Source: Actinomycetota bacterium
GTDB taxonomy: Bacteria > Actinomycetota > Actinomycetes > Nanopelagicales > Nanopelagicaceae
Reading direction: 5' to 3'
Assembly (NCBI GenBank): GCA_947372165.1
Contig: CANBSP010000001.1
Coordinates: forward strand, 124,001-188,000
Length of the DNA: 64,000 nt
The notes under the pieces were generated by a model that did no database searches, was not told where the DNA came from, and worked only from the letters and a program-made list of their open reading frames with translations. A program made the position numbers and the translations under genes. The number at the start of each line of letters is the position of its first letter. Position 1 is the stretch's first letter. This document shows positions 15,285 through 42,300 of the stretch, piece by piece.

Positions 15285-16472
15285 TTGAATCAATCCACCC
15301 AACACAAGGCCCAAGGATCGTTCTTGGCTGCCCTCTCTCGGGATGAGCGCAGACGTCTTGCGGCAATGTTCGGTGTGATCTTCTTCCTGCTTATTGGTGG
15401 AACTCTCTTGATGTGGGCCGCCACGTCCGGGCATTACAAACTCGCAGATGGCACTCTATTTGGTTGGGGTACCGGTTTCCTGGCTCTCACACTCGGAATG
15501 CGCCATGCATTTGATGCAGACCACATCTCTGCGATCGATAACACCACTCGCAAATTGATGTCCGAAGGAAAACGCCCACTCGGCGTCGGCTTCTTCTTCT
15601 CACTCGGCCATTCATCTGTTGTTACCTTCTTAGCCATTGTCTTAAATTTCGGAATTAAATCACTCGGTGTCCAGGTTAAAGATGAGAACTCCTCTCTTCA
15701 CCACTACACAAGCTTGATCGGAACATCAGTAAGCGGCGCCTTCCTGATGCTCATCGCTTTGCTCAACCTGGTGGTCCTCCTCTCTGTTGTAAAGGTTTTT
15801 AAGGCGATGCGAGAGGGCCTCTACAACGAGGACGAACTTGAGAAGCATTTGAACTCGCGCGGTTTCATGATGCGCTTCTTTGGTCCAATTGCACGGCGCA
15901 TTGATACGAGTTGGAAGATGTATCCGCTTGGCATCCTCTTTGGCCTTGGCTTCGATACCGCTACCGAAGTTGCCTTGCTCGTCCTGGCAGGTTCATCAGT
16001 TGTTGCCGGCTTACCTTGGTGGGCAATTCTCAGCCTGCCTATGCTCTTCGCTGGGGGAATGAGTCTGCTCGACACTATTGATGGTTCCTTTATGAATTTT
16101 GCCTACGGTTGGGCATTCTCTCGCCCGGTTCGCAAGGTTTACTACAATATCGTTATTACTGGCCTATCAGTTATCGTCGCAATCTTCATTGGTGGCTTGG
16201 AAGTTGCTCAAGTCTTTGCGACACAACTTAACTTCACCGGCGGCTTCTGGAATTACGCACTTGCCTTCAATATTAATAAGGCCGGTTTCATCATTGTTGC
16301 GATGTTTGTAGCGGTCTGGGCCTTCGCCCTTCTCTTATGGCGTTTTGGCAATATTGAACAACGCTGGCATGACCAAGCTCATGCAGCACAACTCGCGCGT
16401 GGTGAAAACACCGACCATGTTGCCGCTGGTATCGAACTCGGGGCAATTAAAGATGGCTTCGTCATCGATTAA
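15285..16472 (+). CDS. Nickel/cobalt permease, NiCoT family
   Basis: High-affinity Ni2+/Co2+ uptake permease of the HoxN/NixA type, 395 residues and about eight membrane helices. The signature His-x4-Asp-His is His74 to His80 in RHAFDADHISAID; the second family motif is LGFDTATEVALL; a third conserved stretch is AGGMSLLDTIDGS. The start is TTG with AGGGG nine bases upstream. A perfect Nur-type box precedes it, so nickel-dependent repression is likely. No nickel enzyme lies nearby, so the user of the metal must be elsewhere. Confidence 0.93.
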   Translation: MNQSTQHKAQGSFLAALSRDERRRLAAMFGVIFFLLIGGTLLMWAATSGHYKLADGTLFGWGTGFLALTLGMRHAFDADHISAIDNTTRKLMSEGKRPLGVGFFFSLGHSSVVTFLAIVLNFGIKSLGVQVKDENSSLHHYTSLIGTSVSGAFLMLIALLNLVVLLSVVKVFKAMREGLYNEDELEKHLNSRGFMMRFFGPIARRIDTSWKMYPLGILFGLGFDTATEVALLVLAGSSVVAGLPWWAILSLPMLFAGGMSLLDTIDGSFMNFAYGWAFSRPVRKVYYNIVITGLSVIVAIFIGGLEVAQVFATQLNFTGGFWNYALAFNINKAGFIIVAMFVAVWAFALLLWRFGNIEQRWHDQAHAAQLARGENTDHVAAGIELGAIKDGFVID

Positions 16473-16478
16473 CTCCGC

Positions 16479-16484
16479 TAGGCT
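16479..16484 (+). promoter_or_regulatory. Candidate leaderless -10 box for marC
   Basis: TAGGCT, six bases before the ATG at 16491, overlapping the end of the NiCoT stop region. Confidence 0.55.
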
Positions 16485-16490
16485 TTACCA

Positions 16491-17111
16491 ATGCACAATC
16501 TCGCTTCGCTCACTGCAGTTGGTTTTGGACTCCAAGCTTTCGTCACCTTGCTTGTAATCCTTGATCCACCTGGCGCTACCCCATTCTTCTTAGCGCTTGT
16601 TGGCGACCGCACTCCTAAAGAGCGAATTAAACTTGCTTGGCAAGCTGCGGGCGTCTCATTCTTCGTCATCACCATCTTCGCGCTCTTTGGAAAAGCTGTT
16701 CTCGGATACCTTCATGTATCGATCTATGGCTTGCAAGGTGCAGGTGGTCTCCTCCTCCTTTTAATCTCTCTTGAACTTCTGACTGGCAAGGACAACCCAG
16801 ATCTGGACGCTCCAAAGGGAAATGTCGCACTCGTTCCACTTGGGACTCCCCTACTCGCAGGACCAGGGGCGATCGTCACAACGATGCTCTATGCCAATTA
16901 CGCTCACGGAAGTGCTCGCATCGGATCGCTCTTCCTTGCGATCGCTGCCACTCACGTGGTTATTGGAGTCACCTTGATGTTCTCGACGAAGATCCTTGGC
17001 CTCATTAAGGAGTCGGGGGTCACACTCTTTGCTCGAATCGCCGGTCTATTGCTCGCTGCCATCGCTGTCGAGATGATTGTCGCCGCTATCAAGGGTTTCT
17101 TTAATCTCTAG
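16491..17111 (+). CDS. MarC-family integral membrane protein
   Basis: Six-helix membrane protein of 206 residues in the MarC (UPF0056) family; the biochemical role is not settled despite the name. Family marks are LVILDPPGATPFFLAL in helix 1, GGLLLLLISLELL in helix 3, and PLGTPLLAGPGAIVTTM before helix 4. It starts 18 bases after the NiCoT stop but has its own TAGGCT box, so it may be transcribed alone as well as by read-through. Confidence 0.88.
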   Translation: MHNLASLTAVGFGLQAFVTLLVILDPPGATPFFLALVGDRTPKERIKLAWQAAGVSFFVITIFALFGKAVLGYLHVSIYGLQGAGGLLLLLISLELLTGKDNPDLDAPKGNVALVPLGTPLLAGPGAIVTTMLYANYAHGSARIGSLFLAIAATHVVIGVTLMFSTKILGLIKESGVTLFARIAGLLLAAIAVEMIVAAIKGFFNL

Positions 17112-18731: not shown

Positions 18732-18850
18732 CGCTCTCTTCTCCTTCCCTTAACGCCCCATTCACCTCAATATTGCCCTTGGGTCACTTCGTCTCCATAT
18801 TTTTCTCCTACGCGTGATTGGGTAATTGCGCCGTAACCATAGGAGCCTTC

Positions 18851-19894
18851 GTGAAGATTTCACAAAAAATTTCACTAGCAGCAGTTGCAATCGCAACTGT
18901 ACTTGCTGGTTCAATCTCGCCTGTAGCTCATGCTGCGGACGCGCTTCAGCTTTATGCTGCTCTCGATTATTCAACGGATGTCGCGACAGCTTTCACAGCC
19001 AAGACTGGCATTCCAGTCAACGTAACAGCACTTTCAACAGGACCATTGCTCGCAAAGATCACAGCCGAGAAGAACAACCCTCAGTGGGGCGTTTACTGGG
19101 CAGATGGAGCAGAACCTTGCGCAGCGTTTGATTTGGATAAGCAACTCTTGCATTACAAGTCACCGGGTGCACACCTGAACGCGATCGGCGCTCAGCTCGC
19201 TCCAAAGACCACTGCCTACCAGGTTCCAGGATTCACTGAGATGGTCGGAGTTGTCTATAACTCTTCCAAGGTCCGCAAGCCAACATCATGGGATGACCTC
19301 GCAAGCGCTGATTTCAAGAACCAAGTTGGCATGAACAATCCATCAGTCTCAGGCCCAACATTCCCATTCATCGCAGGCCTTATTCAGCAGCTTGGAAGCC
19401 AAGATGCGATGAAGGCTTATCTCTTGAAGTTGAAGTCAAACGGTCTTCGTGCCTTCGATAAGAATTCAAAGACTCTTGCAGCACTTAACACTGGTGTGAT
19501 TAACGTAGGACTTGTTCAGTCTTCAGCAGCCATCACCGAAGTTAACAACTATAAGGCGAAGCCAGTTGCAGGCCTTACGCCTGCAGTAACTTATCTTGAT
19601 AAGACAACTGTTCTTCCTTCATGCCTAGCAATCGACGGTAAGGCTTCGGCTTTCCAGCAATCAGCGGCTAAGAAGTTTGCTGATTTCGTCATGAGCTCTG
19701 AGGCAGTTGCAATCATGGTGAAGTCCAACTCTGGAGATTCACTCTTCTGGCCTACTCTTGTTGGTCGCACACCATCGACTGCAATCACATCCATGCCTGC
19801 GATCTCATCTGGCAAGGTTCAGATTGTTGATCCATACAAGTACGCACTGATCCAAGGTGAAGTCCAGGATTGGTTCACTAAGAACGTCGCTTAA
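18851..19894 (+). CDS. ABC transporter substrate-binding protein (Fe3+/thiamine/phosphonate type)
   Basis: Extracellular solute-binding protein of the family that includes FbpA-type ferric-binding proteins. The GTG at 18851 follows AGGAG by five bases; an earlier in-frame start adds 11 non-signal residues and is rejected. The signal peptide ends at AHA-AD (about residue 28). No lipobox cysteine is present, unusual for a Gram-positive binding protein. Two cysteines in the mature chain (EPCAAF, LPSCLA) could form a disulfide. The Tyr-Tyr iron ligands of FbpA are not obvious, so the substrate is inferred only from the FTR1-like neighbour. Confidence 0.85.
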   Translation: MKISQKISLAAVAIATVLAGSISPVAHAADALQLYAALDYSTDVATAFTAKTGIPVNVTALSTGPLLAKITAEKNNPQWGVYWADGAEPCAAFDLDKQLLHYKSPGAHLNAIGAQLAPKTTAYQVPGFTEMVGVVYNSSKVRKPTSWDDLASADFKNQVGMNNPSVSGPTFPFIAGLIQQLGSQDAMKAYLLKLKSNGLRAFDKNSKTLAALNTGVINVGLVQSSAAITEVNNYKAKPVAGLTPAVTYLDKTTVLPSCLAIDGKASAFQQSAAKKFADFVMSSEAVAIMVKSNSGDSLFWPTLVGRTPSTAITSMPAISSGKVQIVDPYKYALIQGEVQDWFTKNVA

Positions 19895-19917: not shown

Positions 19918-21672
19918 ATGTCTAAGAATAGAGAGCTCGAGGCTGCATTGCCTCGGGCTCTCTCTTTTGTTCGTGCAAAATTCTCACCCATGACCGCCTT
20001 TTGGCTCATCATCATCAGCATTCTTGTCCTTCCCATAATCCTCTTTCTTGCAGTCGCCTTCAGTCCCAAACTTCTTGATCAAGGCCCTCAGTGGTTTACC
20101 TTCAATAGTTTTAAGGCTGCAGCAGATCCCTACTTTGTCAGATCTATCTGGCACTCCTTTCTCCTTGGAGTGATCTCCGCTATCGCCGCAACCTCCATCG
20201 CAGTTGGAGTGGCATGGATTGTGTTGCGTACCAACGCCTCTGCTCGCAAGATCTGGAACCTTTCAATCTTCGCCCTTCTCCTTGCGCCTTCTTATCTCAT
20301 CGCCTTGGGATGGGAGCGAATTTTTGAACGTGCTGGTGTTCTCAACATTATTGGCATAGATCTGCCTCAAGTGAGAGACCTCCTCTATGGACCGGTTGGC
20401 ATCGGCATGATCCTCACCTTTAAAGGAATTCCCTTTGCCTACCTCGTCATCTCCAACGCAATGCGTGGCCTGGGTGAAGAGTTTGAGCAGGCAGTACGTG
20501 TACATGGTGGATCCCGCCTTCAAGCCTTCAAGATGATGGTCACACTTCTCCTCCCAGCGCTCTGGTCTGGTATCGCAATCGTCTTCGCTGAAAGCATCAG
20601 TGATTTTGGTGTCGCCTCCCAGCTCTCCTCCCCTGGCCGATACTCGGTGGCAACCTTCACGCTCTATAAATCTGTGATGTCGATACCAGTTTCATTCCCT
20701 CTCTGCGCCGCCATCTCCATCATCCTTCTCGCACTCGTGGTGCTCGCCCTCCTTGCGCAGGCAAAGGCGCTACGAGGTAGGTCCTTCCGCGTACTCAGTG
20801 GCCGAACTAGGCCGGTGACGCGCCACAAACTCTCTCGCCTTGGCGCGGTGGGTTCCAACTCGGCAATTTACGGGCTGCTATTTCTTACCTTAGGAATCCC
20901 AGTCTTTGGTGCCATCTCTGCCTCGATGATTCAAGGTCTTGGAACAGTGATTACCAATTATCAATTTAACTTTGATAACTACCTTCGCGTAATCAAGAGC
21001 CCACTTCTTCGTTCCCCGCTCCTCTTCTCTGCCGAGGCAGCGCTCATCACGGCCACGGTCGCCGTAGTCCTTGCAGCCGTCTCCTCCAAAATGCTTGTTT
21101 CAACCAAAAATGGTGCCGGCAAGAAGTTTCTCGACTTCTTCCTACTCGCCGCAGTTGGACTACCCGGAATCGTCTTTGCGATCGGCTACATCTTCGCCTA
21201 CAACCTCCCAATTGCTCAGAAGTATGGGTTCCATCTCTATGGAACGGTTGCGCTCTTAGTCTTGGCCTATATCGCCACGGCTCTCCCATCGACGACTCGA
21301 TCACTTGTCGGAAACATGAATCAATTCCAGGAATCCCTCTCTGAGGCATGTCGAGTACATGGCTTCAATGCAATCAAAACCTGGATCGCAGTCGTCCTTC
21401 CTCTGATCTCACGTCCACTCTTAGCTGCCTGGTGCCTCACCTACTGCGGCACACTCCTCGAACTACCCGTAAGTCAGATTCTCTACCCACCAGGGCATGC
21501 CCCGCTTGCTGTAGGTATTGATCGCGCCCTTGGAAACTATGACTTTGGAGGAGGAACTGCGATGGAGGTCTTTGCCATTATCTCGGCTTTGATCGTAGTA
21601 GCGATCATGTTTGCTCTCTATGAATTCTTCGCACCTCAAGGGTGGAAACAACTAGGAAAGGCACGTCAATGA
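19918..21672 (+). CDS. ABC transporter permease, two fused membrane domains
   Basis: Permease of 584 residues with two BPD_transp_1-type halves in tandem, like FbpB or ThiP. There are about twelve helices, with a cytoplasmic EAA-like loop in each half: FEQAVRVHGGSRLQAFK (about 180-196) and LSEACRVHGFNAIKTW (about 472-487). These contact the ATPase. It starts 23 bases after the binding-protein gene and overlaps the ATPase gene by four bases. The fused architecture is usual for Fe3+, thiamine and 2-aminoethylphosphonate importers. Confidence 0.92.
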   Translation: MSKNRELEAALPRALSFVRAKFSPMTAFWLIIISILVLPIILFLAVAFSPKLLDQGPQWFTFNSFKAAADPYFVRSIWHSFLLGVISAIAATSIAVGVAWIVLRTNASARKIWNLSIFALLLAPSYLIALGWERIFERAGVLNIIGIDLPQVRDLLYGPVGIGMILTFKGIPFAYLVISNAMRGLGEEFEQAVRVHGGSRLQAFKMMVTLLLPALWSGIAIVFAESISDFGVASQLSSPGRYSVATFTLYKSVMSIPVSFPLCAAISIILLALVVLALLAQAKALRGRSFRVLSGRTRPVTRHKLSRLGAVGSNSAIYGLLFLTLGIPVFGAISASMIQGLGTVITNYQFNFDNYLRVIKSPLLRSPLLFSAEAALITATVAVVLAAVSSKMLVSTKNGAGKKFLDFFLLAAVGLPGIVFAIGYIFAYNLPIAQKYGFHLYGTVALLVLAYIATALPSTTRSLVGNMNQFQESLSEACRVHGFNAIKTWIAVVLPLISRPLLAAWCLTYCGTLLELPVSQILYPPGHAPLAVGIDRALGNYDFGGGTAMEVFAIISALIVVAIMFALYEFFAPQGWKQLGKARQ

Positions 21673-22748
21673 AGAGCGGTCATTCAATTCGAATTGTTGA
21701 GGCACGGAAAAATTATGGTTCCTTGGCGGCGCTCAATGGCCTCTCCCTCGAAATTCAAGCCGGTCAATTCACAGTGCTTCTTGGGCCTTCTGGCTCTGGA
21801 AAGTCCACATTAATCAGATCCCTAGCGGGAATTGAGAAACTCGACTCTGGTTCAATCTTCTTCGGCGATCGCGAGGTTAATAAGGGTCCACTCAACCTTG
21901 CTCCAGATAAGCGTGATCTTGCGATGGTCTTCCAAGATTACGCACTCTGGCCACACCTCAGTGCCTTCGACAATATTGGATATGCACTCAAGCGCCGCAA
22001 GTTGCCGGCGGAGGAGTCCACAAAGAAGATCAACCAAGCGCTCGCACAAGTTGGGCTTGGAACAAAAGGAGCTAACTACCCGCATCAACTCTCCGGTGGT
22101 GAACAACAACGTGTTGCACTCGCTCGCGCAATCGTCGCTGACCCAGCGTTACTGCTCTTTGACGAGCCGCTCTCCAATCTCGATGCTGATCTACGCGAAA
22201 GATTACGTATCGAAATCTCTACATTGACTCGAGAGATCGGCGCATCAGCTCTTTACATTACTCACGATCAATCTGAGGCCTTTGCTCTTGCTGATCGTAT
22301 CGGTGTCATCAATAAGGGCTCCATCGAGCAAATTGATACCCCAGAAGCCATCTACAACACACCGGCAACTCGCTTTGTCGCGACCTTTACGGGCACGGCA
22401 GGAATCTTTACCGGTGTGGTGAAATCCGTTGGCGAGGAGAGTTGCATCGTGACCCTCGGAAATGAAGAACTCACGGCTCGTCACACAGTCGCTATCTCTG
22501 TTGGGCAAGAGGTCGACCTACTTGTTCGCCCTGCGGCAACGAGTTTCACCGATAAGGACAAGAACCGCATCTCCTCCACCATCACAGATATTGCCTACCG
22601 CGGTCGAGGATATGAGCATGCGATTGAGACGAAATACGGGTCCCTGACTGGCGTATTCGATACGATGTCACATCCGCGTGGTCGAACCATGGAGGTCTCC
22701 ATCGATCCCGAGCGTTGTATTGCTTTCCCGCACCAACCAAAGAATTAA
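21669..22748 (+). CDS. ABC transporter ATP-binding protein
   Basis: ATPase of the FbpC/PotA type, 359 residues. Walker A is GPSGSGKST (about 39-47), Q-loop VFQDYALWPH, signature LSGGEQQRVALA, Walker B LLLFDEPLSNLD, switch His in YITHDQSEA. A C-terminal TOBE-like regulatory domain follows (about 240-359). The ATG at 21669 overlaps the permease stop and has GGAAAGG upstream; an in-frame start nine codons earlier is unlikely. It belongs to the same operon. Confidence 0.93.
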   Translation: MKSGHSIRIVEARKNYGSLAALNGLSLEIQAGQFTVLLGPSGSGKSTLIRSLAGIEKLDSGSIFFGDREVNKGPLNLAPDKRDLAMVFQDYALWPHLSAFDNIGYALKRRKLPAEESTKKINQALAQVGLGTKGANYPHQLSGGEQQRVALARAIVADPALLLFDEPLSNLDADLRERLRIEISTLTREIGASALYITHDQSEAFALADRIGVINKGSIEQIDTPEAIYNTPATRFVATFTGTAGIFTGVVKSVGEESCIVTLGNEELTARHTVAISVGQEVDLLVRPAATSFTDKDKNRISSTITDIAYRGRGYEHAIETKYGSLTGVFDTMSHPRGRTMEVSIDPERCIAFPHQPKN

Positions 22749-22789: not shown

Positions 22790-23821
22790 ATGTTTCACTC
22801 ACTCAGCGGCAATGACATCGCCCTTTTCGTATCTGTCTTTCTTGCCTGTGCGGTCGAAGCAGTTGAAGCAGTCACCATCATTCTCGCCGCCGGCACCTCA
22901 CGTGATTGGCGCTCAACATTTCAAGGCGTTATCTCAGGGCTGGTAGTTCTTGCAGGTCTGATCGTCGTTCTCGGACCAAGTATCGACAAGCTTCCTAAGA
23001 GCACCTTGCGGTTAATGGTTGGCGGATTACTTCTCGTCTTTGGTATGCAGTGGCTACGCAAAGCTGTCCTGCGCGCCAGTGGCTTCAAAGCGTTACACGA
23101 CGAAGAGAAGATCTTCAAGGATGAAGTTGCAGCGGCTCAAGGTGTTGCGAGAGTCTCTCGCTTTGCTGTCACTGACTGGTATGCCTTCACTCTCTCCTTC
23201 AAAGGAGTATTGCTTGAAGGCTTAGAGGTCGTCTTCATCGTTGTTACATTTGGAATTATCCAAAAAGGTTCAAACCCTCAAGCATTCTCACTCGCTGTCT
23301 GGGCTGCGGCCATCGCAGTGGTGATTGTTGCTATTGCAGGATTTGCTATCCATAAGCCACTCTCCCGTGTTCCCGAGAACACCATGAAATTTGTCGTCGG
23401 GACTTTGCTTACCTCGTTCGGAATATTCTGGGGGGCAGAGGGCGCGGGTGCGACCTGGCCTCATGCTGACCTCTCACTCCTTGCCATCATTCCATTTGTT
23501 CTTCTCGCCTGCTTTGGATTGATAACCATCCTGAAAGCTCGCAAGGCGAAGAACCTTCCTATCCGCAAGCTAAACCTTCCAACTTTTAGTGAGCCATCCA
23601 AAGATGCTTCGTTGCCTATTCGCTACCTCGGGGGCTTCCTCTTCTTCTGGTATGACTTCATTATTGGCGACGATTGGCGCGTAGCTGCCGGTGTCGTTCT
23701 TGGCTTCTTTGCCACACATGCCATCGGCTTATCTGGCTGGTGGCTCATGCCAGTAGTCGTTGCCTTGATGTTGGTCTATACCTTGCATGAAGCCACTCGC
23801 CCAGCAAAGGTCGCGGCTTAG
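22790..23821 (+). CDS. Divergent FTR1-like membrane protein with C-terminal two-helix extension
   Basis: Membrane protein of 343 residues related to the iron permease FTR1/EfeU, with about seven helices in the first 240 residues. The two Arg-Glu-Gly-Leu-Glu motifs of true FTR1 are altered: the first reads VEAVEA (Glu23, Glu26) and the second LEGLE (142-146), both without the arginine. A separate C-terminal part (about 270-343) holds FWYDFIIGDDW and two more helices not found in EfeU. AAGGAG precedes the ATG. It is the last gene of the ABC cassette, so it probably shares the substrate, perhaps iron or another metal. Compare the canonical EfeU at 41464-42300. Confidence 0.75.
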   Translation: MFHSLSGNDIALFVSVFLACAVEAVEAVTIILAAGTSRDWRSTFQGVISGLVVLAGLIVVLGPSIDKLPKSTLRLMVGGLLLVFGMQWLRKAVLRASGFKALHDEEKIFKDEVAAAQGVARVSRFAVTDWYAFTLSFKGVLLEGLEVVFIVVTFGIIQKGSNPQAFSLAVWAAAIAVVIVAIAGFAIHKPLSRVPENTMKFVVGTLLTSFGIFWGAEGAGATWPHADLSLLAIIPFVLLACFGLITILKARKAKNLPIRKLNLPTFSEPSKDASLPIRYLGGFLFFWYDFIIGDDWRVAAGVVLGFFATHAIGLSGWWLMPVVVALMLVYTLHEATRPAKVAA

Positions 23822-41463: not shown

Positions 41464-42300
41464 ATGTTGAGCACTTTCTTGATCGCCCTCCGTGAGGGTC
41501 TTGAGGCTTCGCTCATTGTCTCTATTCTCGTCGCCTACCTCTCCCGCACTGGTCGTAAGAGTTTCGCCAGGTATATCTGGATTGGCGTGGGATGCGCAGT
41601 AGCGCTCAGCTTTGGCCTAGGCGCACTCCTCTCATTCACCACCACAACGCTCTCCACCCGTTCGGAAGAGCTCTTTGCCGGCGTTACCTCAATCCTTGCT
41701 GTCGCATTTGTCAGCACGATGGTCTTTTGGATGAAGCGCACTGCCAGAGGCCTAGGTAAGGAGCTGCAAGGCAAGGTCGATCAGGCCCTTCCGCTCGGTG
41801 CATTTGCTCTCATCGCCACCGCCTTCTTTGCTGTCGCCCGAGAAGGCCTAGAGACCGCTCTCTTTATCTATTCCAACTTCCGTACTGTGAACTCATCTTC
41901 TGCCCCCTCGCTCGGCCTCATTCTCGGCCTAGTGAGCGCTATAACCCTCGGCGCATTGATCTACCGAAGGACGGTCAAGCTCAATCTTGGAAAATTCTTC
42001 ACTGTCACCGGTTATGGCCTCATCATCGTTGCGGCAGGCGTCCTCTCTCACGCTGTGAGTGAGTTCCAGAGCCGTGGCAACCTTCCTGGCGCCTCCTCCT
42101 TTGCTTGGAACCAGAGTTCTGGCTCGCAGACGCTCTGGACGATCATTGATGGTTCAATCGGAATTGGTTCAAGCCTTACTTGGCTCCAACTCGTTATCTG
42201 GGCGATCTACCTCATCCTGATGATCTCGCTCTATCGCAGGCCGCAGAAGGTAGTGAGAGCTGCTCCCTTAGCCGCACCTGCCACCGCACCGCTCTCGTAA
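41464..42300 (+). CDS. efeU: FTR1/EfeU-family iron permease
   Basis: Membrane permease of 278 residues with seven helices, taking up iron. Both Arg-Glu-Gly-Leu-Glu motifs are intact: residues 10-14 in helix 1 and 126-130 in helix 4. Length and motifs are canonical for EfeU. The usual partners EfeO and EfeB are not adjacent; the next gene is a thiolase. The ATG follows TAGGCT at six bases, and a 24-base inverted repeat covers the -35 region, so metal-dependent repression is plausible. Confidence 0.93.
   Translation: MLSTFLIALREGLEASLIVSILVAYLSRTGRKSFARYIWIGVGCAVALSFGLGALLSFTTTTLSTRSEELFAGVTSILAVAFVSTMVFWMKRTARGLGKELQGKVDQALPLGAFALIATAFFAVAREGLETALFIYSNFRTVNSSSAPSLGLILGLVSAITLGALIYRRTVKLNLGKFFTVTGYGLIIVAAGVLSHAVSEFQSRGNLPGASSFAWNQSSGSQTLWTIIDGSIGIGSSLTWLQLVIWAIYLILMISLYRRPQKVVRAAPLAAPATAPLS

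What the first reader, a model, noticed from the sequence alone, without database searches (positions are those of the whole stretch)
22790..23821. Degenerate FTR1 permease fused to a new two-helix tail in an ABC import operon
True FTR1/EfeU needs two Arg-Glu-Gly-Leu-Glu motifs. Here they are VEAVEA and LEGLE, both without arginine, and the protein carries an extra C-terminal segment with a WYDFIIGDDW motif and two helices. It is the fourth gene of a binding protein-permease-ATPase operon. The canonical EfeU elsewhere in the window shows what is changed. The cassette may be a hybrid importer in which the FTR1-like part moves a different metal or gates the ABC system.
Basis: partly seen in the sequence, partly recalled or inferred. 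Interest (0 to 1): 0.6.

Follow-up and report, generated by a model that had tools for sequence, protein, structure and literature searches.

The report
Two-part metal-transporter-like protein, fused once
The gene is an intact member of a widespread, uncharacterised family of iron-permease-like membrane proteins, joined end to end with a small membrane protein that elsewhere is the next gene, so it looks like a two-subunit transporter made into one chain; the ABC importer beside it is an optional partner that probably carries a phosphorylated small molecule, not iron.

Summary
The gene and its place in a binding protein–permease–ATPase operon are real, but 'degenerate' and 'new tail' are wrong. 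P0001 belongs to Pfam OFeT_1/NCBI 'COG4280' proteins, remote kin of FTR1. The Arg-less motifs VE[AM]VEA and LEG[LM]E are the signature of the whole family (E26, E143, E146 invariant; E23 nearly so). The tail is normally a separate 64–90-residue gene starting −7 to +65 nt from the core's stop. It lies beside or fused to the core in 112 of 114 loci with enough DNA. In 296 genomes it occurs in 13, all with the core. Fusion occurred once (36 fused rows, one clade, 100/96). The ABC trio is optional (27 of 72 loci; 42 have none) and is absent from a close relative. Its binding-protein subfamily was found almost only in core-bearing genomes. Its fold is nearest AfuA/P5PA, which bind phosphorylated ligands; it lacks FbpA's iron tyrosines and keeps phosphate-contact residues. 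A ChrB_N gene is a second optional neighbour (32 of 88). Best reading: a two-subunit LysE-superfamily transporter, probably of a divalent metal, often linked to an organophosphate/phosphonate-type ABC importer. Substrate and direction are inferred. Two loci carry a ferric FbpABC instead, which favours iron.

The parts
22790..23545 (+). OFeT_1/COG4280-type permease core, residues 1-252: seven helices in a 3+3+1 plan; motif 1 VEAVEA at 22853-22870, motif 2 LEGLE at 23213-23227
   Evidence: Pfam OFeT_1 35 bits, cut-off 26.9; model pLDDT 91; 60 of 61 homologues match OFeT_1
23603..23821 (+). fused tail module (WYDFIIGDDW at 23648-23677), elsewhere a separate 64-90 aa gene; invariants F, GDD, P
18818..19894 (+). 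ABC substrate-binding protein, AfuA/P5PA-like fold, no FbpA tyrosine pair
19918..21672 (+). ABC permease with two fused BPD_transp_1 domains
   Evidence: nearest NCBIfam model PhnU2, 129.7 bits, below its cut-off
21642..22748 (+). ABC ATPase with TOBE-like end; ORF as listed starts at GTG, a later ATG at 21669 would overlap the permease stop
41464..42300 (+). canonical EfeU/FTR1 permease with both REGLE motifs, the comparison protein; not part of the cassette

Best explanation
P0001 is a two-subunit membrane transporter made into one chain. SHOWN: the core is a predicted 7-helix (3+3+1) OFeT_1/COG4280 protein with invariant Glu residues in both halves; the tail is a fused copy of a small partner gene kept with the core across phyla; fusion happened once; an ABC importer of the AfuA/P5PA fold class and a ChrB_N gene are recurrent optional neighbours. 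INFERRED: the paired ExxE motifs of the two repeats form a carboxylate site that passes a divalent cation, most likely Fe2+; the tail's GDD motif stabilises or gates this path; the ABC importer brings in a phosphate- or phosphonate-bearing small molecule whose use or chelation is linked to that metal. Direction (uptake rather than export) is the weakest step.
For: OFeT_1 above cut-off for the window protein, matched by 60 of 61 homologues. Motif glutamates invariant or nearly so. Seven core helices predicted, the 3+3+1 plan described for ILT proteins (PMC4608589). Tail beside or fused to the core in 112 of 114 loci with enough DNA, offset -7 to +65 nt when split; 13 of 13 tail genomes have the core; a small gene overlaps the core's stop in the same way in Alphaproteobacteria. 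One fusion, 100/96. Binding-protein subfamily: 3 of 3 genomes in the phylum sample have the core within 4 kb; 6 of 7 in the class sample have it, the seventh is a fragmented genome whose hit runs off its contig. Binding-protein fold: AfuA Z 34.7 (rmsd 2.5, 303 aligned), VcA0625 34.4, P5PA 34.3 versus ferric HitA 31.2. P5PA phosphate contacts T37, S147, G148 have invariant T36, S140, G141 as counterparts. Ferric FbpABC in the same neighbourhood in L110 and L171 supports iron.
Against: No member has a tested function that I could find (no papers). OFeT_1 scores are modest and some members also match GDT1 (28 of 61), so Mn2+, Ca2+ or export are open. No solved fold stands above noise. If the ABC carries an organophosphate, its link to a metal permease is only genomic. 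The ABC is gained or lost 15-16 times on the tree.
Confidence: 0.5

Rival explanations
1. The whole cassette is an iron-uptake system: the ABC trio imports an iron chelate (perhaps ferric iron with a phosphate-type ligand) and the core moves ferrous iron.
For: OFeT_1 is annotated as a ferrous-iron permease family. Two loci (L110, L171) carry FbpABC with the YHYYWY/YHYYYY site next to the core. The binding protein's profile also matches FbpA/HitA strongly.
Against: In the window's subfamily the FbpA tyrosines align with Ser/Ala and His9 is not kept; the fold is nearer to AfuA/P5PA. AfuA itself was wrongly called an iron transporter before its structure was solved (PMC4546632, PMC8427247).
Confidence: 0.25
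2. The core plus tail is a metal exporter (like GDT1, MntP and other LysE-superfamily members).
For: GDT1 match for the window protein (28.4 bits, cut-off 27) and 28 of 61 homologues; NCBI names relatives TMEM165/GDT1 family; a ChrB_N gene, known from chromate resistance, is a frequent neighbour.
Against: No E-x-G-D-[KR]-[TS] motif in the protein; OFeT_1 scores higher and covers nearly all members.
Confidence: 0.17
3. One reading: a degenerate FTR1 in a hybrid importer, moving another metal through or gating the ABC system.
For: Operon position; the ABC binding-protein subfamily is almost confined to core-bearing genomes.
Against: Core and tail without ABC genes in 42 of 72 loci; ABC absent in L061 beside an 89% identical core; motifs family-wide, not decayed.
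Confidence: 0.05

Closest known systems
Pfam PF16955 OFeT_1 / NCBI 'COG4280 domain-containing protein'
   Same: Above-cut-off match for the window protein, 60 of 61 homologues match; seven helices in 3+3+1 order; acidic motifs in both repeats
   Different: This clade carries the tail module fused on; no described function or partner was found for it
FTR1/EfeU iron permeases (PF03239)
   Same: Glu-x-x-Glu spacing of both motifs; remote profile similarity
   Different: No Arg in either motif in any aligned homologue; FTR1 score below cut-off; extra tail module; other neighbours
GDT1/TMEM165 (PF01169, CaCA2)
   Same: Just-above-cut-off match over residues 13-85; same LysE superfamily per PMC4608589
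   Different: Lacks the E-x-G-D-[KR]-[TS] motif
AfuABC / P5PAB (hexose phosphate, pyridoxal phosphate ABC importers)
   Same: Nearest fold of the binding protein; phosphate-contact Thr/Ser/Gly positions kept
   Different: Ring-binding His/Asp not evident in the alignment; fused double permease; only about 20-23% identity
PhnS2/T2/U2 putative 2-aminoethylphosphonate importer
   Same: Best-scoring NCBIfam models for all three ABC genes
   Different: All three score below the equivalog cut-offs

Membership tests
FTR1/EfeU | two Arg-Glu-x-x-Glu (REGLE) motifs | tested here: not met
   VEAVEA and LEGLE; no Arg at either place across the alignments; EfeU in the same window has both
FTR1/EfeU | Pfam FTR1 score above cut-off | tested here: not met
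   15.2 bits, cut-off 25.3
OFeT_1 / COG4280 | Pfam PF16955 score above cut-off | tested here: met
   35.0 bits, cut-off 26.9; 60 of 61 homologues match at E<=0.01
OFeT_1 / ILT | seven helices in 3+3+1 order | tested here: met
   predicted model, pLDDT 91; plan from PMC4608589
OFeT_1 / ILT | FGX(K/R)XL in helix 3 (shared by ILT and CaCA2 in PMC4608589) | tested here: inconclusive
   helix 3 has FGMQWLRK: FG and L kept, Q where K/R is expected
OFeT_1 / ILT | transport of iron or lead | not testable with these tools
   needs an assay
GDT1/TMEM165 | E-x-G-D-[KR]-[TS] motif | tested here: not met
   absent from the sequence
FbpA ferric-binding proteins | adjacent tyrosines (Tyr195/Tyr196) and His9 | tested here: not met
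   aligned to Ser/Ala and not His; L110 and L171 proteins do have the tyrosines
AfuA/P5PA organophosphate-binding proteins | fold and phosphate-contact residues | tested here: met
   Z 34.3-34.7, rmsd 2.4-2.7, 302-304 residues aligned; T36, S140, G141 invariant against P5PA T37, S147, G148; T149 is Pro here
AfuA/P5PA organophosphate-binding proteins | ligand-ring residues (AfuA His205, Asp206, Glu229; P5PA Tyr103, His203) | tested here: inconclusive
   no clear counterparts, but the alignment there has gaps

The most novel reading that the evidence does not exclude
Core and tail are the two obligatory subunits of an undescribed metal transporter, and the ABC trio imports a phosphorylated metal ligand (a small phosphate or phosphonate chelator), so that metal and ligand enter by paired routes under ChrB_N control.
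Probability: 0.15. Interest if true: 0.7.

Novelty: new variant of a known kind. Interest (0 to 1): 0.45.

Why it matters
It turns an apparent decayed permease into a testable two-subunit transporter present in freshwater and soil actinobacteria, with a similar gene pair on rhizobial plasmids. The small GDD partner has no meaningful Pfam match and sits unnoticed as a 'hypothetical protein'; its strict co-occurrence with the core predicts an obligatory subunit. The link to an AfuA-like importer offers a substrate lead for a binding-protein subfamily that would otherwise be annotated as iron or phosphonate transport.

Tried and rejected
Degenerate FTR1: rejected, motifs are family-wide. New domain born at the C-terminus: rejected, split partner gene in 65 loci. 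Obligatory ABC-permease hybrid: rejected by ABC-free loci. Ferric-binding protein in the window: not supported. Solved fold for the core: Foldseek found nothing at E<=0.001 and VIA-align gave only common-arrangement scores up to 8.4, so no family is inferred. Profile comparison of the family with the window's EfeU was weak (probability 0.3%), though it lined up motif 1 with EfeU's second motif. The promoter scan found fewer sites than shuffles; terminator-like hits exceed shuffles (14 against 6.1) but lie inside coding sequence and were not pursued. Papers on COG4280 and PF16955: none found. ABC presence does not follow fusion: in 7 independent pairs differing in ABC, fusion never differed. 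The downstream class III aminotransferase is kept only in close relatives and was not taken as part of the system.

Full report
OBSERVATION. The ORF at 22790-23821 encodes P0001, 343 aa, with VEAVEA at 22-27, LEGLE at 142-146 and WYDFIIGDDW at 287-296. It follows a binding protein, a double-domain permease and an ATPase on the same strand. A canonical EfeU with LREGLEA and AREGLET lies at 41464-42300.

FAMILY. Pfam places P0001 in OFeT_1 (35.0 bits, cut-off 26.9), marginally in GDT1 (28.4, cut-off 27) and below cut-off for FTR1 (15.2, cut-off 25.3). Of 61 homologues, 60 match OFeT_1, 28 GDT1 and 12 FTR1 at E<=0.01. NCBI annotates plasmid relatives as 'COG4280 domain-containing' or 'TMEM165/GDT1 family'. 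E26, E143, G144 and E146 are invariant and E23 nearly so; Arg is absent from both motifs in the sequences aligned. The missing Arg is thus a family trait, not decay. The model (pLDDT 91) has seven core helices in 3+3+1 order, a charged loop after helix 3, a linker, then three tail helices, the plan described for ILT proteins (PMC4608589).

TAIL. In 65 of 118 loci the tail is a separate ORF starting -7 to +65 nt from the core stop; in 47 it is fused; 4 of the remaining 6 loci end at a contig edge, and only L092 and L093 lack it. That is 112 of 114. The 118 loci include some genomes fetched twice by two routes. Tail invariants are F19, G22, D23, D24 and P50 of the aligned tail. In 296 genomes of the phylum the core occurs in 17 and the tail in 13, all 13 inside the 17, and the tail lies within about 45 nt of the core in each (one further tail copy in G098 lies by a fragmentary core hit). 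In Rhizobium, Thioclava and Bradyrhizobium plasmids a small gene overlaps the core stop by 4 nt, and its product keeps an acidic pair in two of the three; its kinship to the actinobacterial tail is my reading, not a scored match. On a tree of 101 cores the 36 fused rows form one side of a branch (100/96), so one fusion explains all.

NEIGHBOURS. Of 72 non-redundant loci with at least 4.2 kb upstream, 27 have the full ABC trio upstream and 42 have none of it; the tree needs 15-16 changes for the ABC. Within the window's own genus, L061 has the core 24 nt after the ABCF gene with no ABC trio, while L059, L060 and L062 have it. In the reverse direction, the binding-protein subfamily (E<=1e-40) was found in 3 genomes of the phylum sample, all with the core within 4 kb, and in 7 of the class sample (the window's genome again among them), 6 with the core; G059, fragmented, has a hit that runs off its contig and no core found. 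In G648 the binding-protein contig also ends before the core could be seen. A ChrB_N protein (160 bits) lies within 2 kb in 32 of 88 loci, usually convergent and downstream, and in some loci divergent upstream of the binding protein; none was found in the genus loci examined.

ABC SUBSTRATE. NCBIfam's nearest models are PhnS2, PhnU2 and PhnT2, all below cut-off. The binding-protein model (pLDDT 92.7) is nearest to AfuA (Z 34.7, rmsd 2.5, 303 aligned), VcA0625 (34.4) and P5PA (34.3), with ferric HitA at 31.2 (rmsd 2.6, 297 aligned). FbpA's tyrosine pair aligns with Ser/Ala. P5PA holds phosphate with T37, S147, G148, T149 and S183 (PMC8427247); T36, S140 and G141 here are invariant counterparts, T149 is Pro with Thr next, and T181 may match S183 (my reading of the alignment). 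So an organophosphate or phosphonate is the better guess. Against this, L110 has FbpABC with YHYYWY directly upstream of the core and L171 has FbpABC with YHYYYY divergent from it, with ChrB_N between: two loci that favour iron as the common theme.

MECHANISM. Inferred: the two ExxE motifs, one per three-helix repeat, form a cation site; the tail's GDD may stabilise or gate it; the ABC supplies a metabolite linked to that metal. Direction is unproven.

VERDICT. A real, conserved two-module protein of a known but uncharacterised family; the fusion is derived and single in origin; the ABC is a frequent, non-obligatory partner.

Noticed in passing
41464-42300: EfeU stands without EfeO or EfeB directly beside it; its immediate neighbours are an RNase D-like exonuclease and a thiolase.
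   Followed up: partly
L103, L111, L138, L161, L187 and others: A stand-alone ChrB_N protein lies next to the cassette, convergent downstream or divergent upstream; role unknown here.
   Followed up: partly
L110 upstream of core; L171 -4727 to -830 relative to core: Ferric FbpABC operons in the usual ABC trio position or next to the core.
   Followed up: partly
L073, L074, L075 (minus strand, about 1.2 kb past the core gene): A second AfuA-like binding protein gene, convergent with the cassette.
   Followed up: no
L101:8657-8836 (+): A second tail-like segment without a core beside it, in Frankia sp. AgB1.9.
   Followed up: no
L092, L093 (family f39): Core genes with no detectable tail nearby.
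   Followed up: no
15285-17111: A NicO-type nickel transporter and a MarC/NAAT-family protein, both families of the LysE superfamily per PMC4608589, lie upstream of the cassette.
   Followed up: no
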